DNA from: Bacillus sp. JCM 19058
GTDB taxonomy: Bacteria > Bacillota > Bacilli > Bacillales_H > Bacillaceae_D
Direction of reading: 5' to 3'
Length of the DNA: 24,334 nt
Assembly: GCA_001310555.1 (NCBI GenBank)
Contig: BAXO01000080.1
Coordinates: 1-24,334, forward strand
The notes under the pieces are model-generated. The model did not search any database and was not told where the DNA came from. It was given only the letters and a program-made list of their open reading frames with translations. Made by a program: the position numbers and the translations under genes. Shown here piece by piece: positions 242 to 24,334 of this stretch; positions within the stretch are counted from its first letter, which is position 1, and each line of letters starts with the position of its first letter.

Positions 242-431
242 TCCTGAGCCCTAGCCAGTAAAGTGAAAACGAGTAAGGGACGTTGCCTTAGTTCGATTAA
301 CTGAAAGGAGAACTCCGCTGACGAATAATTGACAATAGCCTTGAAGCGTGTTGCGGTAAACGTTAACCATGCCAACCGCTTTGTCGGCCTGGAGTAATCG
401 TGTTAAACTAAAGGGACAAGGAGTGGATCAT

Positions 432-1235
432 ATGGAAATGCGTGAATTCCGCAAGCAAATCGAGAAAAAGCTAGCCAGAGACGGCTGGGACATTTCTTAC
501 AATCATAAAGAATCGACGTTACGAATAGAGGATCAAACGACTAATAAAGGCGTTACATTGGCACTCAAACCATTATTGGCCAAATGGGAGCGTAAAGAAT
601 TCGATTCGATCGATGAGGCTCTTCGTTATGTGGAAGTGGGCTTAGCAGCGATGAAGCAGGAGGCAGACTTATCAGGCAATGAGAAACGGATCTTTCCGGT
701 CATTCGTGCGACATCATTTCCTACTGAAACGAAGGAAGGAATCGAGCTCCTTTATGATGAACATACGGCCGAAACGAGAGTTTATTATGCTCTTGACTTG
801 GGAGAATCTTATACATTGTTAAATAAAAAGCATCTTGAGTCGTCTTCTTTAACAAAAAAAAGAGTAAAGGAAATCGCGCTGTTTAATGTACGCTCGCTTC
901 CGCAGCCGTTAAAGGAAGATGTCGTCGCAGGAAATTCCTTTTACTTTCTCAGGGCGAAGGATGGCTATGACGCCAGCCGAGTTCTCGATCAATCACTTAT
1001 AGAAAAAATGAACGAAAAAGTGAATGGACAACTTGCTGTTGCTATACCGCATCAAGATGTATTGATTTTTGCCGACATTGTTAACGATAGCGGCTATGAT
1101 GTTTTAGCACAAATGGCGTTACAATTTTTTGGGCAGGGGAGGGTTCCGGTTACGGCGCTGTCGTTCCTCTATCAAGACGGCAAGCTGGAACGACCTTTAT
1201 TTTGGCACAAAAAACCAAGAGGACCGTCCTCCTGA
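432..1235 (+). CDS. ytpQ: YtpQ, DUF1444 family protein
   Basis: Conserved Bacillus protein of about 267 residues with no established function. The family pattern is clear along the whole length: LRIEDQTTNKGVTL near residue 30, PVIRATSFP near 90, YDEHTAETRVYYALDLG near 110, and PHQDVLIFADI plus ALSFLYQDGKLE near the end. I start it at the ATG at 432, which has AAGGAG at 418-423 with an 8-base spacer. The frame is open back to 369, but that upstream part has no ribosome site and does not look like the family. It is one of only two genes longer than 200 codons in the window read without a frame break, although it contains an A8 run at 854-861. It lies upstream of ytpR as in B. subtilis, with a promoter between them. 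Confidence 0.93.
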   Translation: MEMREFRKQIEKKLARDGWDISYNHKESTLRIEDQTTNKGVTLALKPLLAKWERKEFDSIDEALRYVEVGLAAMKQEADLSGNEKRIFPVIRATSFPTETKEGIELLYDEHTAETRVYYALDLGESYTLLNKKHLESSSLTKKRVKEIALFNVRSLPQPLKEDVVAGNSFYFLRAKDGYDASRVLDQSLIEKMNEKVNGQLAVAIPHQDVLIFADIVNDSGYDVLAQMALQFFGQGRVPVTALSFLYQDGKLERPLFWHKKPRGPSS

Positions 1236-1251
1236 GAATTATAAAGTATGG

Positions 1252-1257
1252 TATAAT
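1252..1257 (+). promoter_or_regulatory. extended -10 sigma-A promoter for ytpR
   Basis: A perfect TATAAT is preceded by TG one base upstream (TGGTATAAT), 17 bases after the ytpQ stop codon. No good -35 box is present, which is usual for extended -10 promoters. It would give ytpR its own start of transcription. Confidence 0.55.
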
Positions 1258-1303
1258 AGGAGCTGAAATTTTGTCAAACGGTGACGAATAAGGAGAATGA
1301 ATA

Positions 1304-1926
1304 ATGAATGTATTTTACAATTTAGAAGGTATCGGTGATACGTTAATAATCACCTTACACGATATAGAACCGGCAAAAAGAGCCGTCGAAAAGAAGGGAG
1401 ACGTTGCCCGGATTTTCGATAGTGAGAACGGCGAAACGACCGGCTATAATATTTTCAATATCTCTACGTATGGAGCCATTAACGAACGGGGTCCACTTGA
1501 ACTGAAACAAGAGCTGCAAGCAATCATTGAACGAGCGTTACAGGAAAATGATTTTTCTCATGAATTATCCTTTGAAGGCCACACGCCTTTTGTCGTCGGC
1601 TTTGTAGAGCACAAGGAAAAGCATCCGAATGCCGATAAGCTCAGTATTTGTAAGGTCAACGTTGGCGAGGAAACTCTTCAAATAGTTTGTGGTGCGCCGA
1701 ATGTCGAAGCAGGACAAACAGTTGTTGTCGCCAAAGTTGGCGCAGTTATGCCGAGCGGACTGCTCATAAAAAAAAGCTGCTACGGGGAGTAGAATCAGCA
1801 GGAATGATTTGTTCAGCACAGGAATTACACTTACCAAATGCTCCAAAAGAAAAAGGGATTCTCGTCCTTGACAAGGGGTACAGCATTGGGGAGCCTTTTT
1901 CAATAAAGGAAGGAAAACAATGCTAA
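1304..1926 (+). CDS. ytpR: YtpR, tRNA-binding (EMAP/PheT-N type OB-fold) protein
   Basis: About 206 residues. The N-terminal half (about 1-90) is the YtpR-specific domain. The C-terminal half is a tRNA-binding OB fold of the EMAP-II / PheT N-terminal type: FVVGFVEHKEKHPNADKL, then LQIVCGAPNV, then AVMPSGLLIK, LRGVESAGMICS and GILVL. Such free-standing domains bind tRNA-like structures; the cellular role of YtpR is not settled. AAGGAG lies 8 bases before the ATG. The frame breaks at the A8 run 1768-1775: the first part ends early at 1792, and the rest (LRGVESAG...) continues in the next frame to the TAA at 1924-1926. Nine or six A restores one frame. A strong terminator overlaps the stop codon. 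Confidence 0.92.
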
Positions 1927-1956
1927 AGAACCACTAGTTTACTAGTGGTTCTTTCT
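1926..1956 (+). terminator. bidirectional terminator after ytpR
   Basis: A perfect 12-bp stem AAGAACCACTAG / CTAGTGGTTCTT (1926-1937 with 1942-1953) has a TTTA loop. T-rich sequence follows on the + strand and the A-rich start of the stem gives a short T run on the other strand, so it can act in both directions. A possible leftward small ORF ends at 1955, just at its right foot. Confidence 0.8.
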
Positions 1957-2086: not shown

Positions 2087-2127
2087 CCTCCTTTTGAACA
2101 GAGTTATATAGAAAGTGAGTGAACAAG

Positions 2128-4711
2128 ATGGGTACGTTTCAAGAATGGGTGAAGCGGATGCAGCAGCTCTTTTTTGGTGAGGAAAGACCGGAAGAACAGG
2201 AACGTTCGGAAGTTAACAGTGAGAAACGCTCATATGGTTTTTTTGGAAGCGGATGATCGTCCAGTCGAGGCAAAAGTCACCTATCAATATGCGAAACCGG
2301 GAAAGTTTCGTTTTCCAGTCATAGAAGATCAGATGTCAGAAGCAAAAAAAAAGACCGGTACGCGTTAGAACAACGCAAAAAAAAGAGCAAAACATAGAGC
2401 AAAACCAAGAACAAAATATAGAACAAAATCAAGAACAAAACAAAGTGCAAACTGAAGAGCGGCCAACCCATGAACAGTTGTTTTCGAATAGTCAATTTAA
2501 ACCGACCTCCATTCCGTCACCTGTTCATGGTTCCGACAGCAAAAAGAAATCAATGCGTCAGGACAAGAAGACAGTGAGCATAGTAATCGAACGGAAGAGT
2601 CTATCCATGGCTCTAGTCACACAACGAGCTCGCTCGAACAAGAAATTCTATTTCTGCACAAGAGGACTCCAGTCCAACCACACGAAAAGGACATTCCCCA
2701 GCAATTGAATGAGCGAACGACGATGCCTGCTCAGCAGAAGCAAGTCGTCAAAGACCCCATCATACATGCTGAACAAAATCAAAGTAATGTCCAACTGAAC
2801 GAACATAAGCAGATAGACAATACGCAAACTAACAACACTATTCTATTAAAAAAAAGAAAACAGGGAAAGGAGCTTCCGTTCAGTTGAGCGCCGAGTAAGC
2901 GCACCACAAGAAGTAAAGGCTGTTGACGAGCAGCCCCGAGTTGAGGGGCCGTCAGAGCGTGTGAGACGAGCGAGCGCGCCACAGGAAGTGGAAGCAGTTG
3001 ACGAGCAGCCCCGAGTCGAGGAGCCGTCAGAGCGTGCGAGAAAAGCGGGCGCAACACAGGAAGGGGAGGCCGTCGGCGAGCAACAGCAAGACGATGCTAA
3101 AATAGAAGCGGCGGCGACGACGGAGAAAACGGCGCTGCCGAAAAACCGTCGGCATGTCGAGCAGCTTAAGCAGCGGAGGATAGAGAAGAAAAGTAAGACG
3201 AGTCAAGCATCCGAAGTACCGTTTAATGTTATGATGCTTCCAGAAGACCGACAAAAAATGAAAAAGCAAAATATAGTAAAGCAGGAACGATCGGACTACC
3301 AAAAGCCGGGCATTCAGCTCTTACGCTATCCGCAAATGCAGACGGAGGATGATTCTAGCTGGCTCAATGATCAGGCGACAATGCTTGAAGAAACATTGCA
3401 AAGCTTCCACGTAGACGCAAAAGTTGTTCATGTGACGAAGGGCCCGTCCGTAACTCGTTTCGAAATTCAACCGGCACGAGGGGTGAAGGTAAACAAAATC
3501 ACCGGATTAACGGACGATATTAAGCTGGCATTGGCAGCAAAGGATATTCGAATCGAAGCACCAATCCCCGGCAAGAATACTATCGGAATCGAGGTGCCAA
3601 ATCGAACGGCGACACCTGTTTTCTTACGAGAGATTTTAAGGAGGGATCGGTTTATTCAGCCCGATTCTCCTTTAACAGTGGCACTAGGACTTGATATTTC
3701 AGGGCAGCCTATCGTTACCGATTTAAAGAAAATGCCGCACGGTTTAGTCGCCGGTGCTACTGGTTCAGGAAAAAGTGTATGTATTAATTCGATTTTAATT
3801 AGCTTGCTCTATAAAGCGAGTCCTGATGAAGTTAAGCTGCTGCTCATCGATCCGAAAATGGTTGAATTGGCACCGTATCATGATTTGCCACACCTTGTAA
3901 CTCCGGTTGTTACCGACCCGAAGCAGGCTACGGCGGCACTCAAGTGGGTTGTGGCTGAAATGGAACGTCGCTATGAGCTCTTTAGTCAACAGGGAGTTCG
4001 CGATATCGTCCGCTATAATGAACTCTACTCCGACTCAAAGACAAAGCCTGCACTGCCTTTTGTGCTCGTAGTAATTGATGAACTAGCCGATTTAATGATG
4101 GTCTCACCTCAGGATGTAGAGGATTCCATTTGCCGTATCGCCCAGAAGGCGCGGGCATGCGGAATTCACTTGCTTCTTGCTACTCAGCGACCTTCAGTCG
4201 ACGTAATCACCGGTTTAATTAAAGCGAACATCCCGACAAGAATTGCCTTCTCGGTGTCATCTCAAACCGATTCGCGGACGATTCTCGACATGAGTGGGGC
4301 CGAGCGTTTGCTCGGCAAGGGGGATATGCTCTTTCACGAAAATGGGACACCGAAGCCGGTTCGGTTCAAGGGACATTCGTATCTGATGCGGAGATTGAGA
4401 ATGTGATCGCTTTTGTCAAAAAGCAAGGAAAGCCGGAATATTTAATCGAAACGACTCAGCTCCAAAAGGCGAACGAGGAATATGAACAAGGCGATGATTT
4501 ATTTGAGGAAGCCTGTTATTTTGTGTGCGCACAGCGATCGGCATCTGCTTCCAGCCTTCAGCGTCGCTTTCGGGTCGGCTATAATCGCGCAGCACGATTA
4601 ATCGATATGATGGAAGCAAAGGGAGTCGTTTCCGAAGCAATGGGAAGTAAGCCAAGACAAGTATTGGTCGACGAATTGGAGCTTGATTCGTTACTGAATC
4701 CGGAAGGGTGA
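2128..4711 (+). CDS. sftA: SftA, soluble FtsK/SpoIIIE-type DNA translocase
   Basis: ATP-driven translocase that clears chromosomal DNA from the closing division septum; unlike SpoIIIE it lacks membrane segments, and none is seen here. The corrected length is about 860 residues. Order: short N-terminus ([19 protein letters not shown]), the family motif [14 protein letters not shown], a Q/N/E-rich linker with tandem repeats (2385-3101), the motor, and a C-terminal winged-helix gamma domain ([20 protein letters not shown]) that reads KOPS/SRS-type sites. Walker A is GATGSGKS at 3753-3776; Walker B-like segments are LLLIDPKM and [13 protein letters not shown]. Frame slips lie at T7 2238-2244, A9 2344-2352, CC near 2533, A8 2848-2855 and GGG 4370-4372. 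Correcting them gives 861 codons exactly, against 952 residues in B. subtilis, the difference being in the linker. Confidence 0.93.
2385..2459 (+). repeat. Q/N/E-rich repeats in the SftA linker
   Basis: In the corrected SftA frame this stretch reads EQNIEQNQ twice, then EQNKVQTEE. It is built from repeats of GAACAAAA-type units, low in complexity and rich in A. It probably forms a disordered spacer between the N-terminal part and the motor. Confidence 0.7.
2892..3101 (+). repeat. 75-base tandem repeat (25 residues) in the SftA linker
   Basis: Two nearly identical 75-base units (2892-2966 and 2967-3041) encode [18 protein letters not shown] and [18 protein letters not shown], each followed by PSER and two or three more residues. 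A third, decayed unit follows to about 3101 ([15 protein letters not shown]). The local GC content is clearly higher than in the linker before it, suggesting recent expansion of one unit. Confidence 0.85.
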
Positions 4712-6101: not shown

Positions 6102-6167
6102 CGCTTCCTATAGGACTCTACTATCTATCCCTTATGACAATTATCCTATACGGAAGCGTATTTTTTT
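6102..6167 (+). terminator. long-stem terminator after the nicotinate phosphoribosyltransferase gene
   Basis: Arms CGCTTCCTATAGGA (6102-6115) and TCCTATACGGAAGCG (6144-6158) pair over 14 bp with one bulged base, followed by TA and seven T. The 28-base loop is long. The bulge disappears if one G is restored in the left arm, matching the G/C under-calling seen in the genes. Confidence 0.65.
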
Positions 6168-6476: not shown

Positions 6477-7775
6477 ATGACTACTTATCATTTTATCGGA
6501 ATTAAAGGGTCGGGAATGAGCGCATTGGCTCAAATCCTTCATGATATGAAATATGAGATTCAAGGTTCGGATGTGGAAAAGAATTTTTTTTACGCAAAAG
6601 CCGTTGGAGCAAAAAGGGATACCGTTTTATTCGTTTAACGAAGCAAATATCCGGCCGGAACAGACAATCGTTGCTTCTGCGGCCTATGGTGCTGAGCATG
6701 TAGAAGTAAAATACGCAATGGAGTTAGGGTTGGAGGTGACTCCATACCCGAAGTTTCTCGGAGCATTCATTCAAAACTTTACAAGCATTGCAGTAACTGG
6801 TTCACATGGAAAAACATCAACAACCGGTCTACTTTCGCATGTCCTTGGCTCTGCCTTTCCTACTTCTTACTTGATTGGCGATGGAACTGGAAAAGGGGAG
6901 GAAGCCTCAAAATACTTTGTTTTTGAAGCTTGTGAATATCGTCGTCACTTCTTGAACTACAGTCCTGATTACTGCTTGATGACCAATATTGATTTTGACC
7001 ATCCGGACTACTTTAAGGATGTGAATGATGTCATTGCTGCCTTCCAGGAAATGGCGATGCAAGTGCAAAAAGCAATTATCGCCTGTGGCGATGACAAACA
7101 TTTGCAAGGTCTTCGTGCCAATGTTCCAGTCGTCTATTACGGTTTCGGCGAGGATAACGATTTTCAAGCTCGTAACGTAGAAGTGAGCAGTGAAGGAACC
7201 ACATTTGAAGTGTTTGTCCGGAACAATTTATACGGGCGCTTTACGACACCCGGCTTCGGAAATCATAATGTCCTGAACGCATTAGGAGTCATCGCATTAT
7301 GTCACTATGAGAATGTTCCTGCGGATGTTGTGGAACAGCATTTAAAGACATTTAAAGGTGTAAAGAGACGCTTTAGCGAAAAGCAAATAGGACGGCAAAT
7401 AGTCATTGATGATTATGCCCATCATCCGACAGAAATCGCCGCAACGATTGAAGCAACAAAGAAAAAGTATCCTGAGCAGCCGGTCGTAGCAATTTTTCAA
7501 CCACACACGTTTACGAGGACGAAAGCCTTTTTAAATGAATTCGCGAATTCACTAAAGGAAGCAGATGTCGTCTATTTGTGTGACATATTTGGCTCTGCCG
7601 CGAAAATGCAGGCAGCTTAACGATCGACGATTTGCTAGTATTAATCCCGAATGCGAGGGTTTTATCAGAGGATGAAGTCGATTCATTAAAGAAGCATCAG
7701 GACAGTACGCTTCTGTTCATGGGGGCTGGCGATATTCAAAAGTTTCAGCGTGCCTACGAGGAATCATTAGCTTAA
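6477..7775 (+). CDS. murC: MurC, UDP-N-acetylmuramate--L-alanine ligase
   Basis: Cytosolic Mur ligase that adds L-alanine to UDP-MurNAc with ATP, the first peptide step of peptidoglycan precursor synthesis; essential. Corrected length is 432 residues, as in Bacillus. Seen in order: [18 protein letters not shown] (UDP-binding N-domain), [13 protein letters not shown] (P-loop), [39 protein letters not shown] and [11 protein letters not shown], then FQPHTFTRT and the C-terminal [18 protein letters not shown] precedes the ATG. Two slips that cancel: T8 around 6584-6591 (seven restores [12 protein letters not shown]) and CC at 7598-7599 (three restores [14 protein letters not shown]). An essential gene broken twice at homopolymers points to read error rather than decay. 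Confidence 0.95.
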
Positions 7776-8067: not shown

Positions 8068-8102
8068 AAAGGTAATGAGCCTAAAAAGGAGTGTGGATCG
8101 TA

Positions 8103-8974
8103 ATGAAAGTTGGTTTAAGTTCATACAGTTTGGTCCAAGAGATTAAATCTGGCAAACTATCAATTTTGGATGTCGTTCAATGGGTTGCGGATCATGGCGG
8201 GGAGCATCTTGAACTCGTCCCATACGGGTATACGGTCGTCGATAATCCCGAGCTTGCTGATGCAATTAAAGCAAAAGCAAATTCCGTGGGAATTGAATTG
8301 TCCGGTTATTCGTTTCCAGCAAACTTTGTACAGGAGAACGAGACAGCTTTTGAAGAAGAAGTAAACCGGATTAAAACGCATATCGATATTGCGAACCGTC
8401 TTGGAATAAAAAGCGTCCGTCACGATGTAACAGCCTTTACGCTTCCTCCAGAGGATATGACGATTCATTATTTTGAAAAGCACTTTGATAAAATGGTCAA
8501 AGGAAGCCAGTTGATTGCCGATCACGCGGCGCAATACGGAATTACGACGACAATCGAGAACCACGGATTCAACGTTCAATCGAGCGACCGCGTCTTAAGC
8601 GTGCTCCGTGCCGTTGATCGAGACAACTTTAAGACAACACTCGATATTGGCAACTTTCTTTGTGCAGATGAGGAACCGTTGGTCGGCGTAAAGAAAAATG
8701 TTGGTTACGCTAATGTCGTTCACGTTAAAGACTTTTATATTCGGCCGTACTATGAAAATCCGGGAGAAGGTAAATGGTTCCGATCTGTTAATGGTAATTA
8801 TTTGCGCGGCGCATCGTAGGTCATGGAGATATTAACATTCGCGAAGCCTTTAAACTGTTGAAGAGTGCTGGGTATGACGGTTATCTGACTGTGGAATTTG
8901 AAGGGATGGAAGATCCTCAAACCGGATCTAAAATTGGAATGGATAATGTAAGAAGGATTTGGAACGAGGTTTGA
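8103..8974 (+). CDS. sugar phosphate isomerase/epimerase family protein (TIM barrel), first copy
   Basis: 290 residues after correction; member of the AP-endonuclease-2-like TIM-barrel family that includes IolE, IolI and tagatose/allulose epimerases. Metal-ligand positions are visible: Glu152 in TIENHG, Asp181 in LDIGN, His207 in VHVKD and Glu265 in TVEFEG. The family isomerises, epimerises or dehydrates sugars and keto-inositols; the substrate cannot be told from sequence. The ATG at 8103 has AAAGGAG about 11 bases upstream; a GTG at 8091 overlaps that site and is less likely. One slip at about 8813 in GCGCATCG (an added C or A restores LRGAIVGHGDINI) makes 291 codons. It begins the cassette and is followed after 39 bases by the dehydrogenase gene. 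Confidence 0.85.
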
Positions 8975-9013
8975 AGAAGAAATATACCAAATAAGTTTAA
9001 GGGAGAGAAAAAA

Positions 9014-10075
9014 ATGAGGAAATTAAAAGTTTGTGTAATCGGGGCAGGCTCGATATCTGATATGCATTTCGGCCCTTATTCTAAGCTGGAGAACGTAGAT
9101 TTGGCCGGAGTCTATGATTTGTCAGTCGAGCGAGCGGGCGAAAAAGCAAAGAAATATAATATTCCTAAAGTATATCAATCGCTGGAGGAAGTTCTTGCAG
9201 ATACGTCAATTGAAGCAGTCAGCATATGTACGTGGAATAACTCGCATGCAGACATTGCCATTAAGGCGATGGAGGCCGATAAGCATGTACTGGTCGAAAA
9301 GCCTCTATGTATGACGATGGAGGAAGCTCTTAAAGTGGAGGAAACGGCCAAAAGGACAAACAAAATCCTTCAGGTTGGCTTCGTACGCCGTTTTGCTACG
9401 AATACGAATGTTTTGAAATCATTTATTGACAAAGGTCGACTTGGTGATATTTATTATGCAAAAACAACGTGCATTCGTAGGCTCGGTAACCCAGGCGGCT
9501 GGTTTTCAGACAAATCGCGTTCAGGTGGAGGACCTTTAATTGATATCGGCGTACATGTGATCGATATTTGCTGGTATTTGATGGGCAAGCCGAAAGTGAA
9601 GTCGATTGTCGGTCATACGTATCATTTACTCGGTAACCGCAACAATATTGAAAATCTGAGCTTTTATAAAGCGGCGGACTATGACGCCAACAACAATACA
9701 GTTGAAGATATGGCCAATGCCTTAATTACGTTCGAAAACGGCGCTTCTCTCTCCGTAGACGTCTCTTTTACGTTGCATGCGAAAAAGGATGAACTGTCCG
9801 TGAAACTATATGGAACAAAGGGTGGCGCAGAGCTAGAGCCAGCTTTGCACATTGTTAGTGAAGAGAATAATACGATTTTGAATATTGAGCCTCAGGTGGA
9901 TCACTTGTCTTTTGATTTTGAAAAAGCGTTCCTTGGAGAGGTTCAAGGCTTTGTTGACAGCTGCCTGAATGGTGCTGAAGTAATTGCGCCTGTTGAAGAC
10001 GGGGTAGAAATCATGAAAATATTAACGGGGATTTACGAAGCTGCTGAAAAGAAATGTGAGGTGGTGTTTGAATGA
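9014..10075 (+). CDS. Gfo/Idh/MocA family NAD(P)-dependent dehydrogenase
   Basis: Oxidoreductase for sugars or cyclitols, 353 residues, read without any frame break. The N-terminal Rossmann fold has VCVIGAGSIS (residues 6-15). The conserved EKP motif with its lysine is at 95-97, and the catalytic segment GGGPLIDIGVHVIDICWYLM at 171-190 contains Asp177, His181 and Asp184. The C-terminal half is the usual alpha/beta substrate domain. GGGAGAG precedes the ATG. The stop overlaps the start of the next gene (ATGA), so the two are translationally coupled. With a TIM-barrel isomerase on each side it probably oxidises the sugar to a keto form that the partners rearrange; this is inference from the context of similar clusters. 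Confidence 0.92.
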   Translation: MRKLKVCVIGAGSISDMHFGPYSKLENVDLAGVYDLSVERAGEKAKKYNIPKVYQSLEEVLADTSIEAVSICTWNNSHADIAIKAMEADKHVLVEKPLCMTMEEALKVEETAKRTNKILQVGFVRRFATNTNVLKSFIDKGRLGDIYYAKTTCIRRLGNPGGWFSDKSRSGGGPLIDIGVHVIDICWYLMGKPKVKSIVGHTYHLLGNRNNIENLSFYKAADYDANNNTVEDMANALITFENGASLSVDVSFTLHAKKDELSVKLYGTKGGAELEPALHIVSEENNTILNIEPQVDHLSFDFEKAFLGEVQGFVDSCLNGAEVIAPVEDGVEIMKILTGIYEAAEKKCEVVFE

Positions 10076-10969
10076 CACAGTCTATAAAAATTACGAACAA
10101 AATCGGTGTTATCGTTGACAGCTTCCAGCTTCCGCTGCGCGAAGGCTTAAAAAAAAGGCAAAGGAGCTCGGAGCTGATGGCGTTCAGATTTACGCAGTAT
10201 CAGGGGAAATGGACCCGGAAAACCTGACGCCCGCTGCGCGTCAAGAACTGAAGTCTTACATTGAAGAGCTTGGGCTTGAGATATCGGCACTTTGCGGTGA
10301 TTTAGGCGGCCATGGTTTTCAGGACAAAGCAGAAAACGTAGAAAAGATGGACAAATCGAAGCGAATTATGGAGCTAGGCGCTGAGCTTGGTACAAATATC
10401 GTAACGACTCATATCGGCATAGTACCTGATGACACGAGTTCGGCTATTTATGATAATATGCAATCGGTATGTGATGAGCTAGGACTGTTTGCCAAAGAGA
10501 TGAATGCGTATTTTGCAATCGAAACAGGACCAGAAACCTCGAGACATTTGAAAGCATTTCTTGACACTTTACGGACAGATGGAGTTTCCGTGAATTTTGA
10601 TCCGGCTAACATGATTATGGTTACCGGGGACGATCCAGTTGAAGGCGTTAAAGTATTAAAGGATTATATCGTCCATACTCATGCAAAGGATGGAATCCGC
10701 TATAAACCGGTCGATCCACGAGATTTATATGGCTTTTTAGGCTACGGTGGCGGCACGGATCATGATAAGATTGCTGAAATGGTCGCGGACGGAGAGTTTT
10801 TTTTAAAGAAATGGCCCTTGGGAAAGGGGATCTAGATTTTAACGCTTATTTCCAGGCATTACAGGAGATTGGCTATAACGGCTATTTAACGATTGAGCGT
10901 GAAGTGCGAGAGCAGCCGGTGAAAGACATTGGCGATGCGGTTCAATTTTTACAGAGCTTTAAAAAATAA
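10072..10969 (+). CDS. sugar phosphate isomerase/epimerase family protein (TIM barrel), second copy
   Basis: About 297-299 residues; same fold family as the gene at 8103 but clearly diverged from it. Metal-ligand motifs: FAIETGPETS (Glu), SVNFDPANMIM (Asp), VHTHAKDG (His) and LTIEREV (Glu). The start overlaps the dehydrogenase stop by four bases (ATGA). Two slips: A8 at 10149-10156 (six or nine A restores the frame into AKELGADGVQIYAVSGEM) and T8 at 10797-10804 (six or nine T restores EFFKEMALGKGDLDF). After these the frame runs to the TAA at 10967-10969. It ends the enzyme part of the cassette; a terminator-like region follows before the regulator gene. Confidence 0.85.
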
Positions 10970-10987
10970 GGGAACGAGCATAAAGGG

Positions 10988-11040: not shown

Positions 11041-11120
11041 GGAATAAGACACCTCCTCTAAGCGGAGCATAAGGAGGCTCGACGTTACAGACTGGACGAC
11101 ATAGGGAGGAAGACTATTTT

Positions 11121-12386: not shown

Positions 12387-13502
12387 TCATTTCAAATTCT
12401 CGGGATTTAAAGGCTCGAGCTGTGGCAAGACAAATCGCCCGTCTTTGCGAACGAGCACATCGTCAAAGAAAATCTCACCGCCGCCATATTCGGGACGCTG
12501 AATCATGACCATGTCCCAATGGATCGATGAGTTATTGCCGTTGGACGCCTGCTGATAGCATTGGCCAGGTGTAAAGTGAAAACTGCCATCAATTTTCTCA
12601 TCAAACAAAATATCCTTCATCGGATGCTGAATATAGGGGTTGACACCGATAGCAAATTCTCCAATAAAACGGGCACCCTCATCCGTATCGAATATTTTGT
12701 TGATACGGTCGCTGTCGTTAGCTGTTGCTTCCGTTATTTTTCCGTCCTGAAAGGTTAAAGATACTTGTTCGAAAACAAAGCCTTGATAAGGTGAAGGGGT
12801 ATTGTATGTAATGACACCGTTAACCGAATTGCGAACAGGAGCCGTATACACTTCCCCGTCAGATGTTGAGATGCCCGGCACACTTTACCGAAGGAATACC
12901 TTTAACAGAAAAGGATAAGTCAGTTCCAGGTCCGGTTATGCGAACGCGGTCCGTTTTGTCGAGTAATTGAACTAGCGGCTCCATCGCTGTATTCATTTTT
13001 GATAATCGATATTGCAAACATTGAAGTAAAAATCTTCAAACGCCTCAATGCTTGTATTAGCTAACTGCGCCATGGATGGAGTTGGAAAGCGCAAGACGAC
13101 CCATTTTGTCTTTGGGACTCTTATTTCTTGATGCACCTTTGACGTTACCGTTTTTCCGTACATACTCATTTTTTTTCTGAGGGAACATCGCTGAACTCAG
13201 AAATATTGTCTCCTGCCCTTAAGCCGACATAGGCATCCATCTGGCTCATCACATTGGCTTCAAACTGAGCAAGCTGCTCTAGCTGTTCTTGCTCCGCCCC
13301 TAACAGTAAAGAGCGATTCACTTGATGATCCTTTAATGATACAAATGGGTAACCTCCGACCTTGTAAGCTTCGCGGACAAGTGCGGAAACAAACTCACGC
13401 TGGAGGCCAAAGTTTTCAATTAATACTTTTTCCCCTTTTTGCAAATCGATGGAATACCGAATAATTTTTTTGAGCTAGCGTTTCTAATCTAGGGTCTTTC
13501 AT
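12387..13502 (-). CDS. ampS: AmpS, M29 family metallo-aminopeptidase
   Basis: Cytosolic aminopeptidase of the thermophilic-aminopeptidase (M29) family, about 371 residues after correction. Seen: [91 protein letters not shown] with the metal glutamates, FHFTPGQ and [20 protein letters not shown] with the metal His and Asp. AAGGAGG precedes the ATG at 13502. Slips: A7 at 13475-13481, A8 near 13168-13176 (six restores SEKMSMYGK), near 12996 (one base missing, YxKMNTAM), and near 12862, where two C missing restores AGHLNIPDGEV. These give 372 codons. It stands leftward between two rightward units and has its own promoter. Confidence 0.92.
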
Positions 13503-13676: not shown

Positions 13677-14113
13677 ATGGAAATATTACTTTACATAAGT
13701 GCAATTATTGCGGCTGTGGCATTTGCCGTATTAGTGATATATTTAGTTCGTACACTGATATTAGCCAACCGTACACTGGATCATGTGCCAATACAATGGC
13801 AGGTCTGGAAAAACAAATTAATGGAATAACAAAAGAGACAGAAGAGCTTTTGCATCGAACGAACCGTTTGGCAGACGAGATCCAACGTAAAACCGATTCA
13901 CTAAACACTGTTTTTACGACGGTAAAGGACTTGGGAGATTCAGTACAGCAAGTGAATCACTCGATCAAGCATGTGTCGAGTACAATCTCAAACCAAGCCA
14001 TTCAGCAGTCCGAAAATATAGCTCAGGCGGTTCAGTGGGGAAATGTTATTCTTGACTTCTATACTAGATTCAAAGCCCGTCAACGCCGTGAAAAAAATAA
14101 TGATGAGAATTGA
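13677..14113 (+). CDS. ytxG: YtxG, DUF948 membrane-anchored stress protein
   Basis: 145 residues after correction. One N-terminal membrane segment (EILLYISAIIAAVAFAVLVI, residues 2-21) is followed by a long helical, probably coiled-coil part: AGLEKQINGITKETEELL, RTNRLADEIQRKTDSLN, VKDLGDSVQQVNHSIK. This is the DUF948 pattern, a domain resembling part of chemotaxis receptor coils; the molecular role is unknown. AGGAGGTG (13661-13668) precedes the ATG. One slip near 13787: GTGCC must be GTGGCC to join LDHV to ANTMAGLEKQ. It shares a sigma-B promoter with ytxH, 24 bases downstream. Confidence 0.9.
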
Positions 14114-14137: not shown

Positions 14138-14591
14138 ATGGCGGATATGAATACGAAGGATTTTTTTGATTGGAACATTAATTGGTGGAATAGTAGGGGC
14201 GACGACAGCTTTATTATTAGCGCCAAAATCGGGTAAGGAACTGCGCAGTGATTTAAATGAACAAGCACAAATTGCTCGTAATAAAACGACCGAATTGACA
14301 TCGACTGCCTATGAAAAAGGGAATGAATGGGCAAATTACGCAAAGGAAAAATCGTCTAATCTGGCTAAAGTTGTTTCCGATCAGTCGGCCCAAGTTGTTG
14401 AAAAAGTGAAGGAAGCTACTAAGAATGCAAGAGCAGAAGCTGAAGGCGTGACAGAAGCTGCAAATGAACTGTCGGAAGACCTAACGGGCGAGCCTGGCTC
14501 AGCAGGTGAAGAAGTTGAAGAAAATGTTAAGCAGGAAATCGATGATATTCAAAGTAAAGTTTCGGAGGAAGCCGAAACCCAAAATACGTAA
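14138..14591 (+). CDS. ytxH: YtxH, general stress protein (gas-vesicle-like YtxH family)
   Basis: 150 residues after correction. A hydrophobic N-terminus (FLIGTLIGGIVGATTALLLA) is followed by the family hallmark PKSGKELRSDL and a long charged, helical tail rich in Ala, Glu and Lys, ending in an acidic stretch. A member of the YtxH-like family, membrane-associated, of unknown molecular function, induced in general stress in B. subtilis. AAGGAGG precedes the ATG. The only slip is T7 at 14161-14167, where six T restores MADMNTKDFLIGTLIGG. The usual third gene of the operon, ytxJ, is absent; a strong terminator follows at once. Confidence 0.9.
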
Positions 14592-14841: not shown

Positions 14842-17002
14842 TCAGGACTTGGAGTCATCGACAATTAAATCGATGTGATCTCCATTAGTAAGTGGAGCAG
14901 TAAAGCTCGTTTCCTGCCCATTCTTTCTCAGTCGGATCATTTGCTTGCTTTTCAGAGGAAGCTCAAGCTCGACTTTAGCAAAAATGTCTTGCAAGATGAA
15001 GGGCTCAACGTTTCTTTCTAACATTGTCAGCTTATCGCCGGCTGCAATCGAATCGGAGCAAGACATGGGTACTTGTTCTTTTTTGACTTCAATCACTTGT
15101 TTTTCGAGTACGATCGGCTTGTGATTAAAAAAGACTTCAATTTTCATAACGCATTCTATATTTAGGGCAGTGGCTAATGAATGAACAGTTGCTTTTTCAG
15201 GAAGCGCTTGCTCTAGCCATTCAAATCGATCATGATTTTCTACCGAATCTTCGAGGGTAACCGCTTTTCCATTTTTTCGAATAGTATTTGTCAAATTTGC
15301 TAAATTCACCGTCTTACCGTTTACCGTCACTGAAAAAGCGCAGAACGGTTCAAGCGGAATATGTAATGCAGTCAAGATTTCTTTAACAGTGGTAGGGAAT
15401 TCGATTGTCAATACATCGCGTTCCTGTACCTCTGCCATCTCCTGAACTATTGCCCCATTGCACTTAATCGTTGCCGGAATCTCTACGGCTGTTTCGTTAA
15501 TCGTAATGGAAAGCTGAGGTACTTCCCCGAGAAGCTCCTTAATTGTAACGTTGGCCTGCTTTCCGTTTGCCCCCCGTTCGACATGAATTTGATCATTGGG
15601 TTCAAGTGGGGCATCAAAGGAGGTGGGCTCTCCATTTTTCAAAAGCCGTGGGGGTTGCCCATGCTCCCCCGGAATAGAAATAAGGCGATTTTGGACGGTT
15701 GCCATCTTTGCTAGACCAGGCTTACCATATAGCTTCGAAATATCGATCCCTGCTGCCATCAGTCCATCCCCAACGGTTAGACGTTGACGTCAAACAAGCG
15801 CAATTTCTCGTCATTTACGAGTACACTCACATATTCAATTGGGTTTTCTTTTGCTGCGATAGCAATTCCGATTGGTGTAACGAACTCGGGTCCACGTGAA
15901 TCCCGTCTGCAGTCATTAGCTTTTTAATCGCCTCCATTCCGCGAATTGCGACGCGATTACTCGGCAGCTGTAAGGCATCGGCTAGATGCTTTGTCAAATT
16001 AGGGGTCATACTACCGCCTCCGACGAGCATGACAGCCTTTGGCGCTTTTCCATTTAGTCGGATAATTTCTTCACTAATAGAGCGCGCTAAAGTTTGGATC
16101 GCCGAAGTAATTGGCGCAACAATATCTTCTTTTGCATAGAGTGTTTCAAAGCCGAGAATATCTTTTATTTCTACTTCATCTTTCGTGCTGAGCTCACGCT
16201 TTACCGCTTCTGCATCCGGAAAGTCTAGCAGAAAATGATCGCTAAGCGCCTCAGTAATTTCGTCACCAGCTACTGGAACCATACCATAGGCTGTAACAGT
16301 ACCTTCATCTGTTAAGGCAATGTCGGATGTGCCCGCACCGATATCGACAAGAGCGACATTCAGACGGCGCATCGATGGGGGAATAAGGACATTGATCGCT
16401 GCTATTGGTTCGAGTGTCAGTGCTTCAAGTTCGAGATGGACGAGAGAAAGAGCTGTAAGCAGCGATTCGACTACGATCTTAGGTAGAAAGGTCGCAATGA
16501 CTTCGACAGTTGCTGTTTCTCCATTTTGCTCAAGTAGGCTCCCAATGCGTTCACCATCAAGGAGATAAGTCAATACAGAATAGCCGACACAATAATAATG
16601 GGAAACAAACTCTTTTTCCTGCTCTTTGGCAAGGGCATACTGAGCTTGTTGCACAGCGCTTAATTCAAGATGAAGCACATCATTTCGCTCTAGCATCGGT
16701 TTTCCTTTTATAGCGATTTCATAGGAAGATCGTTTCGTTTTCAAGGAGCGCCCTGCCGCTGCAACACAGACTTTAGTTAATGGGCCGTTGCGCTCTTCGA
16801 GTTTATGCTTAACCCTTGCAATGACCGCAGCCACTGAAGGGATGTCGTGAATTTGTCCATCAAGCATGGAGCGTTCGGTATGCTCAATCGTTTCTAGGTC
16901 CAATAGCTCAAACTGTTCACCCGATTGCTTAAGCAGCAAGCCAACAACGGAACGAGTTCCGATATCGAGGGCAAAGAAAGGTGAGGTCGAAAGCTCTGTC
17001 AA
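14842..17002 (-). CDS. FtsA/PilM-like actin-fold ATPase with long repeat-bearing C-terminus
   Basis: About 720 residues after correction. The N-terminal ~370 residues are an FtsA/PilM-type actin fold: FALDIGTRSVVG (phosphate 1), an SHS2-type insertion (VCVAAAGRSLKTKRSS), LVDIGAGTSDIAL (phosphate 2, about 218-230) and AVMLVGGGSMTPNL (adenosine motif). The C-terminal ~300 residues lack a known domain but repeat a beta-rich unit: LLKNGEPTSFDAPLEPNDQI, IRKNGKAVTLEDSVENHD, LRKNGQETSFTAPLTNGDHI. It is much longer than true FtsA (about 440) and has no membrane-targeting tail. I prefer the TTG at 17002, which has AGGTGA five bases upstream, over ATG 17017. Slips: GGG 15888-15890 and near 15779, each lacking one G/C-type base. 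Function unknown; perhaps a scaffold or type IV pilus/division-like role. Confidence 0.8.
14845..15648 (-). repeat. degenerate protein repeats in the C-terminus of the FtsA-like protein
   Basis: Three copies of an approximately 25-residue unit, K/R-N-G-x-x-x-S/T-F-x-A-P-L-x-x-x-D-x-I, lie near 15648-15571, in the middle of the region, and at 14937-14845. The first and last are closest (TSFDAPLEPNDQIHVE and TSFTAPLTNGDHIDLI). The pattern suggests repeated small beta domains, perhaps of beta-grasp type. Confidence 0.55.
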
Positions 17003-17017
17003 ATAAATCACCTGCAT

Positions 17018-18308: not shown

Positions 18309-18614
18309 AAAAAATCTTACCTCCTAGCAAAAAGTTACATTGTATAATTTTCGTTTAAATACGGAATTAGCGAATGATTTAATCAAGGTGATTATTGCTA
18401 TTTAAGCAAATATTAAAGGCTTTTAAAAGGTGAATTATTCAAATTCATAAATAACACCACGCTTTTGCGAAATTACTTCGCTTAGGTTAATATCATGTTA
18501 AATCCAATCTTCCAATAGGTTGTTAAAAGTGTAGGGCTTGTAAAAGAAAACCCTTGATCAATTTTTGAAGTTAAACATAATTTTGCTCTTAAACGTAAGA
18601 ATGAGGTGACTTCG
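18309..18614. other. 306-base AT-rich intergenic region
   Basis: Lies between two divergent genes (phosphotransferase leftward, methyltransferase rightward). It holds the phosphotransferase ribosome site at its left edge and a possible promoter for the right gene at 18554-18581. Nothing else is recognised. Confidence 0.5.
18554..18581 (+). promoter_or_regulatory. possible promoter of the RlmA-like gene
   Basis: TTGATC (18554-18559), a 16-base spacer and CATAAT (18576-18581), about 34 bases before the TTG start. Moderate match only. Confidence 0.35.
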
Positions 18615-19480: not shown

Positions 19481-19797
19481 AATAGACTTAGGGGACGGCA
19501 GTTTTCACAAATAGATTATTTTTTCTGCCAACCAAGCGAGTTATCGGACAGATGCCGCGTGCACGTATTGGCCAGTTTTTTCTGAGGATCATGACCGTGG
19601 TGCCCATACTAGCAACGGAAAAAGGATGGTTGTCAGTAGCTATTTAAAAGCGCCTTGTCGAAGGAAGGATAACGCCAGTTTACTTTAGCGCTTAAAAGCG
19701 TTTAATTAATAAAGAAATAAGTAGTGACATTCTCCGGAATATCCTTTATAATGAATCCTAATTACAAAGAAGATAGCGAGAAAAAGGAGTGGGAGAA
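19481..19797 (+). other. intergenic region with a possible transposase relic and the aroA promoter
   Basis: 317 bases. At 19488 a GGGGACGG motif, then ATGCCGCGTGCACG (MPRAR) near 19550 and, in another frame, DHDRGAHTSNG resemble in order the leader and N-terminus of an IS200-like (Y1, REP-associated) transposase, heavily decayed. The rest holds a GCGC-rich hairpin near 19687-19700 and the aroA promoter. The transposase reading is weak. Confidence 0.3.
19724..19752 (+). promoter_or_regulatory. sigma-A promoter of aroA
   Basis: GTGACA (19724-19729), exactly 17 bases, then a perfect TATAAT (19747-19752), 46 bases before the start codon. Confidence 0.7.
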
Positions 19798-20872
19798 TTG
19801 AGCAATGAGCAAATCGACACGTTAAGGGCCGAGCTGGATAAAGTGAATTTACAGCTCTTAGAATTAATTAATGAACGAGCAGTACTCGTTCAGGAGATTG
19901 GTAAAGTAAAAGGAAAGCAAGGTGTTAATCGGTTTGACCCGGTTCGGGAAAGGAAAATGCTTGATCACATTGCTGATAACAATAAAGGACCGTTTGAAAC
20001 ATCAACGTTACAGCATATTTTCAAACAAATATTTAAGGCTAGTCTTGAACTACAGGAGGACGATAATAGCAAAGCATTGCTCGTATCACGGAAAAAGCAT
20101 CCGGACAATACGGTTGTTGAGGTTAGAGGTGAAACAATCGGGGATGGTGACCAACGCTTAATCATGGGACCGTGTGCAGTTGAAAGCTACGATCAGGTCG
20201 CTACTGTGGCTAAAGCAATGAAAGAGAGAGGTTTGAAGCTGCTTAGAGGAGGGGCCTTTAAACCGCGAACATCACCATACGACTTTCAAGGTCTCGGCTA
20301 GATGGTTGAAGATTTTAAAGCAAGTCGCCGAAGAACTCGATATGGCTGTCATCAGCGAGATCGTAAATCCAGCTGACGTAGAGTTCGCCGTTGACTATGT
20401 TGATGTTATTCAAATTGGGGCAAGAAATATGCATAACTTCGAGCTACTAAAAGCGGTTGGGTCTGTTGATAAACCAGTCTTGCTGAAGCGCGGTCTTTCA
20501 GCTACGATTGAAGAATTCATTCATGCGGCTGAATACGTCGTCTCGAAGGGGAACGGCAAACTGATGCTTTGTGAACGCGGGATTCGCACGTATGAAAAAG
20601 CAACGCGGAACACATTGGATATTTCAGCCGTACCGATTTTAAAACAGGAAACCCATCTTCCGGTTCTTGTCGATGTTACCCACTCAACTGGGAGGCGCGA
20701 TTTATTAATTCCAACGGCAAAGGCTGCATTAGCGATCGGGCGGATGCCGTTATGGCGGAAGTTCATCCGGATCCGGCAGTTGCACTTTCTGACTCTGCCC
20801 AGCAAATGGATATCCCGCAATTCAATGCCTTTATTGATGAGCTTCAAGCTTCCGGTCTGTACAAAAAAATAA
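19798..20872 (+). CDS. aroA: AroA, chorismate mutase / DAHP synthase bifunctional enzyme
   Basis: Condenses phosphoenolpyruvate and erythrose 4-phosphate to DAHP, the entry step of aromatic amino-acid synthesis. The N-terminal chorismate mutase (AroQ) domain (about 1-90: [28 protein letters not shown]) also senses prephenate/chorismate for feedback. The DAHP synthase domain follows: [82 protein letters not shown] and [14 protein letters not shown]. The TTG at 19798 with AAGGAG 8 bases upstream matches the B. subtilis N-terminus. Slips: two bases missing near 20300-20306 (GLxDGLKILK), GGG 20738-20740 (four gives [11 protein letters not shown]) and A7 20863-20869 (six gives LYKK-stop). The corrected length is 358 residues, as in B. 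subtilis. Confidence 0.95.
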
Positions 20873-21363: not shown

Positions 21364-22366
21364 GTGAATACAACAATATATGATGTAGCAAGAGAAGCAG
21401 GAGTGTCGATGGCTACTGTTTCCCGCGTTGTCAACGGCAACCCTAATGTAAAACCGACAACTAGAAAAAAAAGTGCTGGAGGCAATTGAACGCCTTGGCT
21501 ACCGGCCAAATGCTGTTGCCAGAGGGCTAGCAAGTAAAAAGACAACAACTGTCGGTGTAATCATCCCCGATATTTCGAGCATCTTTTTTTCTGAGCTGGC
21601 GAGAGGAATCGAGGATATCGCTACGATGTACAAATACAATATTATCCTTTGTAACTCAGACCAAAATAAAGATAAAGAAATCCATTTGATTAATACGTTA
21701 CTCGAAAAGCAGGTAGACGGAATTGTCTTTATGGGTGGTCAAATTACGCAGGAGCACGCGGAACAGTTTAAATTGTCTCCAGTGCCGATCGTCCTCGCAG
21801 CTACTTTGGATACGAACAAGGAACTGCCATCTGTGAACATCGATTATCAGCAGGCAGTTGAGGATGCCATTGGTCATTTAATTAAAAACGGACATAAGAA
21901 CATTGGAATGCTTTCTGGAACTTTAGACGATCCGGTCAACGGCTTTCAAAAGTTTAGTGGGTATCGGAATGCACTTGAGAAAAATGGGATTGAGTTTGAT
22001 GAAAAGTTAATTGTGATTGGGGATTATACACACGATTCCGGTGTAGAAGCAGTAGATACGTTCCTTCAGCTTGATGAGAAACCGACGGCGATTTTCGCTT
22101 CAACCGATGAAATGGCGCTAGGGGTAATCCATGGGGCACAGGATAAGGGGTATCAAATTCCCGACGATCTTGAGGTTATCGGCTTTGACAATACACGTTT
22201 GGCGACAATGGTTAGGCCGATGCTGTCAACGGTTGTTCAGCCAATTTACGATATCGGTGCTGTTTCTATGCGGTTGCTCACAAAATATATGAATAAAGAA
22301 GACGTTGCCGAGCATATCGTTGTGTTACCACACCGTATTGAATTCAGACAAACAACAAAATCGTAG
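21364..22366 (+). CDS. ccpA: CcpA, carbon catabolite control protein (LacI family)
   Basis: Global regulator of carbon metabolism; with HPr-Ser46-P it binds cre sites. Corrected length 333 residues (334 in B. subtilis). The LacI helix-turn-helix and hinge read [53 protein letters not shown]; the periplasmic-binding-like core includes [52 protein letters not shown] and [19 protein letters not shown]. The GTG start has GGAGGA upstream. Its only slip is A8 at 21465-21472, within the conserved RKK-VLEAI join, where seven A gives an unbroken frame. It may also act on the sugar cassette through the cre-like site at 7929. Confidence 0.97.
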
Positions 22367-22486
22367 CGGGAGCTATCAACGATAGGCTAATCGTCGAGCC
22401 ATCGACTTATATTTTGCTGTAGCGCCTGTAACGATTCCGTTGCTTATATAAAGGTTAACGGTTTTAAAATAGACAGGGAGAGGAAT

Positions 22487-23287
22487 ATGAAAAAAAATCG
22501 ATCTGTTAACGCCGATAGGAATATTACTTGGCTTTACGATTATTTTATTGGCGGTTTTTTTCAGATTCTGGTATATCAGGATTTGTTTATTTTATAAGCT
22601 TGGCTTCCTTTCTAATCGTAATTGGCGGTGTCATTGCAGCAATTGTCGTAACTTTTTCATTTGATGAATTGCGTGGAGCCCCTAGAGTATTTAAGGAAGC
22701 TTTCGAATCAGTTGAATACGATCTTGACCAGTTAATTGCCACATTTGTCGAATTATCAGGGAAGGCTAGACGCGAGGGACTACTTTCGCTTGAAACGGAT
22801 GTGCAAGAAGTAGACGAGCCCTTTATCAAAAAAAGGTGTCCTACTAGCTGTAGATGGAATCGATCCTGAAATGATTAAAGATATTATGATGGCAGAGGTC
22901 GTCTCTTTAGAAGACCGTCATCGAAAAGGTCGTTCCATTATTGAAAAAGCTGGCGATTATGCCCCTGCCTGGGGAATGATCGGTACATTGGTTGGCCTGG
23001 TGATGATGCTGCAGACGATGGATGACCCTACTTCTCTAGGACCTTCTATGTCACTAGCCTTGCTGACCACTTTATATGGCGTCGTGTTGGCCAATCTTGT
23101 CTTTAATCCGATTGCCAAAAAACTTGAAAACAAAACGGAAGAAGAAGTATTTTTCAAGCAATTGATCATCGAAGGTGTGATCAGCATTCAATCGGGACAG
23201 AACCCTCAAATCCTAAAAGAAAAGCTCAGCGCTTATTCGAAAACGTCTCAAAAGAAAAGATCAGGTGAGCAAGATGATCAGGCGTAG
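22487..23287 (+). CDS. motP: MotP, Na+-type flagellar stator subunit (MotA-like)
   Basis: Membrane subunit of the MotPS stator; with MotS it conducts Na+ to drive the flagellum. Corrected length 265 residues. Seen: two N-terminal membrane segments (IGILLGFTIILLAVF and FISLASFLIVIGGVIAAIVV), a cytoplasmic loop with LSGKARREGLLSLE and EPFIKKGVLLAVDG, then AGDYAPAWGMIGTLVGLVMM and LGPSMSLALLTTLYGVVLAN for membrane segments 3 and 4, with the conserved prolines. GGGAGAGG precedes the ATG. Slips: A8 at 22490-22497, T7 at 22555-22561 and A7 at 22828-22834, each one base too long; removing three gives 266 codons. It follows ccpA as in B. subtilis and overlaps motS. Confidence 0.94.
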
Positions 23288-24025
23288 GATACAAAAAAAA
23301 GAAGACGGGTGCGCCGAATTGGATGGTAACCTATTCAGACATGGTTACGTTAATTCTCATCTTTTTTTATTTTATTATTTTCGATGTCGAGTATTGATGC
23401 CCAAAAGTTCCGAGACATTGCTGAATCGTTTCAGCAGCACCAGTTTTTCGACTTTCTACCGTCTGCTGTCGAATTTGAGCACCAGTCGGAGCAAAGGGAA
23501 ATCGATTCGGACAGCATCGATTTGGAATCGATGCCAGACGGACAAGAAGAAGTAGATATGGATGTTCTGCTTTCAGAGATTCAGAGTTTCCTGCAGGAGC
23601 ACAAGATGTCAGATATGGTATCAGCGACAAGAGACGACCGTGGCGTGGTTCTTGTGCTACAGGAGCAAACTCTATTTGAAACCGCGGAAGCTGAACTCCT
23701 TCCGGAGGCAGAGCCGTTTTTAGACAAGGTCGGCACCTTGTTAATGGCAATTCCAAATATGGTTAAAGTTGAAGGACATACTGATAGCAGACCAATTTCA
23801 ACGGCACGCTATCCATCCAATTGGGAATTATCTGGTGCGAGGGCTAGCAGCGTCATCCGCTACTTGATCGACAATCATTCGCTTGAAGCGAACCGCTTTA
23901 TGGCTACTGGCTACGGTTCGACAAGGCCGATTGTGCCAAATACGGATGAGGATAACCTAAGGCTAAATCGACGGGTCGTCATCGTTGTTTCCGATCCGGA
24001 ATACGACGATCATGACACCTACTAA
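23274..24025 (+). CDS. motS: MotS, Na+-type flagellar stator subunit (MotB-like, OmpA domain)
   Basis: Partner of MotP; anchors the stator to peptidoglycan and carries the ion-binding aspartate. 249 residues after correction. A basic N-terminus (MIRRRIQKKKTGAPNW) leads to the single membrane helix WMVTYSDMVTLILIFFILLF with the aspartate at residue 22, then a plug/linker and a C-terminal OmpA-like domain: VKVEGHTDSRPIST, YPSNWELSGARASSVIRYL, ATGYGSTRPIVPN, NRRVVIVV. The ATG lies inside the end of motP (14-base overlap) with AGGTGAG upstream, so the two are coupled. Slips: A8 at 23293-23300 and T7 at 23382-23388, one base too long each; 250 codons result. A terminator follows directly. Confidence 0.94.
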
Positions 24026-24068
24026 CCCCGGTTCTGCAATTGTGCAGGAAGCTAACCCGGGCTTTTTT
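24026..24068 (+). terminator. terminator after motPS
   Basis: An outer CCCGG / CCGGG stem encloses an inner TTCTGCA / TGCAGGAA hairpin, followed by seven T. It ends the stator operon at once after the motS stop. Confidence 0.8.
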
Positions 24069-24156
24069 TGCCTTTCACAACATGTCCTTATGGCTAAGCC
24101 TAAATTTGAAGTCCCTGAGCTGCACTAGTCGGCCCAAAGGAATTCCGACGAAATCT

Positions 24157-24334
24157 TGCTGAATCGTCGGAATCGGTAGCTCTCCTGTCGAATCGGAAAG
24201 CTCTCCCGTCGGATCAGGAGGAGAATCGTCGAATTCCGGCCAACCGTCGAAAAAAGAGCTCTCCCGTCGAAAAAAAGAGCTCTCCCGTCGAAACCGAAAG
24301 CTCTCCTGTCGGATCAAGTAGCTCTCCTGTCGAA
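24157..24334. repeat. 21-base tandem repeat array running off the window end
   Basis: The core AGCTCTCCYGTCGRA starts at 24178, 24199, 24257, 24278, 24299 and 24320: exactly 21 apart except for a decayed middle where only the GTCG core persists (24228, 24246). GTCG at 24166 marks one earlier unit. About nine units are seen. Twenty-one bases is seven codons, so every frame gives a seven-residue repeat; the minus strand reads TGELSDSTGELPIPT or RRESSFF repeats. No plausible gene start supports translation. There are no unique spacers, so it is not CRISPR. Confidence 0.8.

What the first reader, a model, noticed from the sequence alone, without database searches (positions are those of the whole stretch)
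369..24334. About 37 frame slips follow one rule: A/T runs too long, G/C runs too short
Seen directly: 15 of 17 main genes are broken. About 20 slips are at A or T runs read as 7-9 bases, and where family alignment decides the true length the run is one (sometimes two) too long: murC T8 to T7, ccpA A8 to A7, motP three times, motS twice, ytxH T7, ampS A8 to A6. The other ~17 are in G/C context and always lack one or two bases: murC CC, pncB CC, aroA GGG, ytxG G, ROK and ampS C where CCC is expected. Corrected genes have whole codon numbers and family lengths (AroA 358, CcpA 333). The non-coding stem at 6102-6158 lacks one G in the same way. Three A/T sites (ytpR, second isomerase) fit either +2 or -1. 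The A8 in ytpQ reads correctly, so not every run is affected. Inference: a base-calling or consensus bias in the source assembly, possibly long-read or pyrosequencing. The biological alternative, polymerase slippage rescuing genes, does not explain losses in short G/C runs.
Basis: partly seen in the sequence, partly recalled or inferred. Interest (0 to 1): 0.7.

Follow-up and report, generated by a model that had tools for sequence, protein, structure and literature searches.

The report
Sequencing errors in a bacterial contig
Nearly every gene on this piece of bacterial DNA looks broken, but the breaks are almost certainly reading errors of the sequencing or assembly (long runs of A or T read too long, plus scattered lost bases) and not biology.

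Summary
The broken frames are real in the record. A frameshift-aware HMM against up to 30 orthologues per gene finds 31 shifts in 16 of 16 tested genes (16.6 kb): 17 gains, 14 losses. The same method finds 6 in 327 gene tests in 31 related loci and 99 of 100 planted shifts.

The A/T half of the rule holds and is sharper than stated. Sixteen of 17 gain intervals hold an A/T run of 7 or more (chance mean 0.4). Runs read as 6 show 0 shifts of 10; runs read as 7-9 show 16 gains and 1 loss of 22. Run lengths match relatives up to 5, then jump: 45 of 62 runs exceed 6, against 348 of 1087.

The G/C half is not demonstrated: losses are marginally GC-rich (P about 0.05), not enriched in G or C runs, and the lost base is mostly undetermined.

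Divergence looks like ordinary purifying selection. Best reading: a base-calling or consensus artefact. The platform is not identified; Ion Torrent high-frequency indels are the nearest published description, but two Ion Torrent assemblies lack the A/T excess.

The parts
420..1235 (+). ytpQ (DUF1444), 1 shift (loss) near the C-terminus; its A8 run at 854 reads in frame
1304..1926 (+). ytpR (tRNA-binding domain), 1 shift, called as a loss, beside an A8 run
2128..4711 (+). ytpT (FtsK/SpoIIIE family), 5 shifts: 3 gains at A/T runs of 7-9, 2 losses
   Evidence: the Pfam scan of its longest piece gave no family
6477..7775 (+). murC, 2 shifts: 1 gain at T8, 1 loss
8102..8975 (+). sugar phosphate isomerase 1 (PF01261), 1 loss
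9014..10075 (+). GFO/IDH/MocA oxidoreductase, 353 aa, one intact frame
10072..10970 (+). sugar phosphate isomerase 2 (PF01261), 2 gains (called as +2) at A8 and T8
11122..12274 (+). ROK-family regulator, 2 gains, one at A7, one less sure (posterior 0.70)
12387..13502 (-). ampS-like aminopeptidase, 4 shifts: 2 gains at T7 and T8, 2 losses
13678..14113 (+). ytxG, 1 loss
14140..14591 (+). ytxH, 1 gain at T7
14842..17017 (-). FtsA/PilM-like protein, 2 losses
19789..20872 (+). aroA (DAHP synthase / chorismate mutase type, 358 aa family length), 2 loss clusters
21364..22366 (+). ccpA (333 aa family length), 1 gain at A8; its T7 at 21584 reads in frame
22488..23287 (+). motP, 2 gains at T7 and A7 within reach of the HMM
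23286..24025 (+). motS, 2 gains at A8 and T7
6102..6158 (+). terminator-like hairpin with one bulged base

Best explanation
The frame breaks are errors of the source sequence record. Shown: (a) A/T runs are read too long, starting sharply at a true length of about 6: runs of 5 or less and runs read as 6 carry no run-linked shift, while runs read as 7, 8 or 9 carry a gain in 16 of 22 cases; the excess of long A/T runs holds for the whole contig. (b) 14 scattered losses, mostly of one base, lie elsewhere. (c) Genes and selection are otherwise normal. Inferred: the cause is a base-caller or consensus step that over-extends A/T homopolymers longer than about 5, plus an independent class of single-base drop-outs. 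The platform is not identified. A flow-based platform (Ion Torrent type, whose published high-frequency indels are mostly A/T insertions and C/G deletions) and an under-polished long-read consensus are both open, in my judgement about evenly.
For: 31 shifts in 16 genes against 6 in 327 tests and 119,720 codons of 31 related loci; 99 of 100 planted shifts found, none extra. 16 of 17 gain intervals with A/T run of 7 or more, chance mean 0.40. A/T hazard above 6: 45/62 against 348/1087 in 21 relative loci, Fisher 3e-10, and above 7: 21/45 against 74/348, 6e-4; equal at lengths 1-5 and for all G/C lengths. Window 0.726 against a maximum of 0.485 in 41 related genomes and 0.515 in 136 stretches. 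Taking the called shifts away gives in-gene run counts of 65, 21, 7, 3, 1 for lengths 5 to 9, an ordinary decline (my arithmetic). Codon-position divergence as in relatives. No in-frame stop in 5,511 matched codons. Published rule for Ion Torrent high-frequency indels. A known Ion Torrent assembly, L009, holds 3 clear losses and 1 less sure one in the same genes.
Against: No reads or second assembly of this strain were available. The two Ion Torrent plus Newbler genomes do not show the A/T excess: 202/655 and 209/637 runs exceed 6, and fewer than in other relatives exceed 7; one of them, L005, has no shift at all in these genes, although its own 21-kb locus has the second highest hazard of 136 stretches, 26/54. 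Published Ion Torrent and nanopore profiles under-call long homopolymers. Five of 22 A/T runs of 7-8 read in frame and one is linked to a loss. In 5 of 17 gains the protein-only likelihood does not favour the run.
Confidence: 0.96

Rival explanations
1. The indels are real: a hypermutating (for example mismatch-repair-deficient) or decaying genome in which A/T runs have grown and genes are pseudogenes or are rescued by slippage.
For: Homopolymers of 6 or more are also hot spots of real indels (general knowledge, no call). The base letters in the record are consistent with real sequence, and no reads are at hand.
Against: murC, aroA, ccpA, ytpT and others would all be broken together, murC twice and ytpT five times. 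Purifying selection is intact beside the breaks and no in-frame stop substitution is seen in 5,511 codons (HMM biased against stops). Losses outside long runs cannot be rescued by slippage. No related genome of 41 shows such a run spectrum.
Confidence: 0.02
2. Specifically Ion Torrent errors: the losses and gains are high-frequency indels of one run at low coverage.
For: Bragg 2013: such indels are most commonly insertions of A/T or deletions of C/G, about 1 per 1000-2000 bp, mostly specific to one run; strand-asymmetric ones lie 82% in runs of 2-3 and are mainly C/G deletions. Losses here are 1 per 1.19 kb (14 in 16,645 bases). L009, a PGM assembly, has losses only, in short contexts.
Against: In the same paper only 29% of such indels lie in homopolymers, whereas here 16 of 17 gain intervals hold an A/T run of 7 or more; and flow calls under-call long homopolymers. 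G005 and G009 show no A/T excess.
Confidence: 0.4
3. Specifically a long-read (nanopore or PacBio) consensus, over-extended at A/T runs by the assembler or polisher and short at other sites.
For: A Flye draft of an R9.4 metagenome was dominated by insertions, 14,394 against 439 deletions (PMC8011154); in a nanopore assembly many insertion errors follow A or T (PMC12007338); a sharp threshold near 6 would fit a pore that reads 5- or 6-mers (my inference).
Against: Most reported nanopore homopolymer errors are deletions, worse for G/C and for longer runs.
Confidence: 0.4
4. One reading: one bias with A/T runs too long and G/C runs too short.
For: A/T half as above; tight loss intervals are slightly GC-rich, 0.52 against 0.446, P 0.05.
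Against: No enrichment of G or C runs at losses (8 of 12 against 7.1 expected), lost base undetermined in most, normal G/C run spectrum.
Confidence: 0.4

Closest known systems
Ion Torrent PGM high-frequency indels (Bragg et al. 2013, PMC3623719, passages seen)
   Same: Mostly insertions of A/T or deletions of C/G; rate of the same order; produce frameshifts in assemblies
   Different: Published ones lie in homopolymers in only 29% of cases; here 16 of 17 gain intervals hold an A/T run of 7 or more. C/G identity of the losses not shown here
Ion Torrent / 454 flow-call homopolymer errors
   Same: Length errors of homopolymers
   Different: PGM flow calls under-call long runs (PMC3623719); 454 gains and losses are about equal according to that paper; here long A/T runs are over-called
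Nanopore systematic homopolymer errors (PMC8486125, PMC8011154, PMC12007338, passages seen)
   Same: Indels at homopolymers that break frames; drafts can be rich in insertions
   Different: Long homopolymers mostly reported too short
Genuine pseudogenes / slippage-prone genomes
   Same: Frameshifts at A/T runs
   Different: No relaxed selection, no stop substitutions, losses outside runs, all genes hit

Membership tests
Ion Torrent high-frequency indels | Gains are of A or T | tested here: met
   16 of 17 gain intervals hold an A/T run of 7 or more; per-site likelihood favours the run in 12 of 17
Ion Torrent high-frequency indels | Losses are of C or G | tested here: inconclusive
   P(G or C) 0.42-0.57 for 12 of 14 losses; GC of tight intervals 0.52 against 0.446, P 0.05
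Ion Torrent high-frequency indels | About 1 per 1000-2000 bp | tested here: inconclusive
   All shifts 1 per 0.54 kb; losses alone 1 per 1.19 kb
Ion Torrent high-frequency indels | Mostly outside homopolymers (29% inside) | tested here: not met
   Gains sit at long A/T runs
Ion Torrent high-frequency indels | Specific to one sequencing run | not testable with these tools
   No reads or replicate assembly at hand
Ion Torrent flow-call errors | Long homopolymers under-called | tested here: not met
   Window over-calls; two PGM genomes do show a deficit above 7 (28/202 and 32/209 against 70/312, P 0.016 and 0.055)
Nanopore homopolymer errors | Long homopolymers read too short | tested here: not met
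   A/T hazards above 6 and 7 raised
Pseudogene decay | Relaxed selection | tested here: not met
   Ratio of position 1+2 to position 3 divergence 0.285-0.314 for window pairs; L001 pairs of similar distance 0.277-0.309. Window values are at the top of the range, so slight relaxation is not excluded
Pseudogene decay | Stop substitutions besides frameshifts | tested here: not met
   0 in 5,511 matched codons; HMM penalises stops, so this is biased towards none

The most novel reading that the evidence does not exclude
The indels are real: a living alkaliphile of a lineage near Halalkalibacter whose A/T runs of 6 or more have recently grown genome-wide, so recently that selection on the gene pieces still looks intact, with genes rescued by slippage or carried in a dying mutator.
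Probability: 0.02. Interest if true: 0.8.

Novelty: not a real feature. Interest (0 to 1): 0.1.

Why it matters
Any gene-loss, pseudogene or frameshift claim from this contig would be false, and gene callers will have split its proteins (the protein database already holds fragments from it: a 208-aa isomerase piece whose listed relatives are mostly 290-300 aa). One method point is useful: comparing the chance that an A/T run exceeds length k with that of relatives exposes such a record without any reads, and separated this contig from 136 related stretches. If the indels were real, a genome-wide burst of run growth in a living cell would be remarkable, but that is very unlikely.

Tried and rejected
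Direct comparison with the same strain or species: no whole genome is held; the best DNA match of an FtsK stretch in 41 related genomes is 76%; the best named or unnamed protein relatives listed for two isomerases are at most 79% and 75% identical, and the ROK piece had no relative other than itself. Haloalkalibacter hemicellulosilyticus JCM 9152 (Ion Torrent, PMC3907737, whole text) was considered as source: its published G+C is 38.2% against 42.6% here, so it is unlikely; not tested by sequence.

A first control (219 tests, 0 events) was biased because its regions were taken from intact frames; the unbiased one found 6 events and replaces it. A first base-level likelihood with a smooth profile was nearly flat; the sharper one is used. 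A MurC tree puts the window among Halalkalibacter and close kin without a supported position; its branch is inflated by out-of-frame ends. Literature searches for a profile with A/T over-calls in nanopore data returned nothing fitting; searches were full-text word searches of one open library. Searches for other Ion Torrent strains of the same programme by number gave none.

Papers: PMC3907737 whole text; PMC3623719, PMC8486125, PMC12007338, PMC8011154, PMC4719071 passages only; all others listings only.
Full report
What the window is. It is 24,334 bases, and the protein database gives 24,334 as the contig length for proteins it shares with the window, so the window is a whole contig. Its gene order follows Halalkalibacter (ytpQ, ytpR, ytpT, pncB-like, murC, ampS, ytxG, ytxH, FtsA-like, aroA, ccpA, motP, motS), with a sugar gene group between murC and ampS that the three relatives printed there lack between those genes. 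The MurC frame is 76-79% identical to its closest Halalkalibacter relatives; averaged over genes the window is 73-74% identical to each of seven relatives. No conspecific genome is held.

Detecting shifts. I wrote a pair-HMM that aligns a profile of up to 30 orthologues (13 for ROK) to DNA and allows codons of 1, 2, 4 or 5 bases. Profiles came from related loci, from protein search hits for the two isomerases and from distant ROK loci. It gives 31 shift clusters in 16 genes: 17 gains (three called as +2) and 14 losses (two called as -2 with the first profile). A sharper profile gives again 31, with the same 17 to 14 split. Sensitivity: 99 of 100 planted single-base shifts found with the right sign, no extra calls. 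Background: 6 events in 327 gene tests, 119,720 codons, 31 loci. Four of the 6 are in L009, one in L001 (in ytpT, posterior 0.80) and one in L019 (at a T11). L009 is Halalkalibacter wakoensis JCM 9140, sequenced on an Ion Torrent PGM and assembled with Newbler; its events are losses in short contexts, three clear and one in ytpT at 0.89. L005, H. akibai JCM 9157, made in the same way, has none.

The A/T half of the rule. Sixteen of 17 gain intervals contain an A/T run of 7 or more; random intervals of equal size contain one 0.40 times of 17 on average, 3 at most in 1000 draws. By observed length inside the genes: 6, 0 of 10 with a shift; 7, 8 of 11 with a gain; 8, 7 of 10 with a gain and 1 with a loss; 9, 1 of 1. 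The five clean ones are at 854, 2377, 12034, 14091 and 21584. Subtracting the called shifts gives 65, 21, 7, 3 and 1 runs of length 5 to 9, an ordinary geometric decline (my arithmetic). So about half of the true 6-mers (11 of 21) and 7-mers (4 of 7) are over-called, and 5-mers are not visibly over-called. Against this: a run-blind protein likelihood gives the run over half the weight at 7 of 17 gains, 0.3-0.5 at 5, and under 0.03 at 5, among them the ROK site without a long run.

An independent test that uses no alignment. The chance that an A/T run of length at least k exceeds k is the same in the window and in 21 relative loci for k = 1 to 5, but 45/62 against 348/1087 for k = 6 (Fisher 3e-10) and 21/45 against 74/348 for k = 7 (6e-4). 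For G/C runs it is the same at every length. Among 41 related genomes the highest value for k = 6 is 0.485, among 136 single stretches 0.515; the window has 0.726. A and T are both affected, and so is sequence outside the aligned genes.

The G/C half of the rule. For losses the protein leaves the lost base open: the probability of G or C is 0.42-0.57 for 12 of 14, 0.77 for ytpR and 0.97 for ytpQ. Tight loss intervals (12 of 14) are slightly GC-rich (0.52 against 0.446, P 0.05) but hold no more G or C runs than random places do. One loss lies at a T5 in ampS.

Is it biology? Codon-position divergence of the window's gene pieces from seven relatives is 0.22-0.24, 0.11-0.13 and 0.58-0.61 for positions 1, 2 and 3, a ratio of 0.285-0.314; the pairs of L001, of similar distance, give 0.277-0.309. 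There is no in-frame stop in 5,511 matched codons (the model penalises stops). Genes broken two to five times, with losses outside runs, cannot be rescued by slippage at runs. Real decay or a real mutator is therefore very unlikely.

Platform. Bragg et al. 2013 describe for Ion Torrent PGM high-frequency indels that are most commonly insertions of A/T or deletions of C/G, about one per 1000-2000 bases and mostly specific to a run (a review repeats it). But those indels lie in homopolymers in only 29% of cases, PGM flow calls under-call long runs, and 540 kb from two PGM genomes show no excess above 6 and a deficit above 7. Nanopore profiles also report long runs too short, although drafts can be rich in insertions and insertions may follow A or T. 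I leave the platform open.

Verdict. An artefact of base-calling or consensus, of a known general kind, with a clear threshold at A/T length 6 as its particular mark. Interest is low.

Noticed in passing
8091-12274: A sugar gene group (two PF01261 isomerases, an intact GFO/IDH/MocA oxidoreductase, a ROK regulator) sits between murC and ampS; the three Halalkalibacter loci printed show no match to it there.
   Followed up: partly
17341-18350 (-): An APH-type phosphotransferase (PF01636) in at least two frame pieces; not analysed for shifts.
   Followed up: no
18600-19480: An RlmA-like methyltransferase (Methyltransf_11); a likely N-terminal part lies upstream in another frame (name recalled, only the Pfam domain comes from a call).
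   Followed up: no
24165-24334: A 21-bp tandem repeat at the right end of the contig, perhaps why the assembly stops there.
   Followed up: no
2375-2458 and 2898-3082: Short (12/24-bp) and 75-bp tandem repeats in the YtpT linker; shift calls in this part are the least sure.
   Followed up: no
L009, positions 12734, 18599, 18988: The deposited H. wakoensis JCM 9140 draft (Ion Torrent) carries apparent single-base losses in ytxG and motP.
   Followed up: partly
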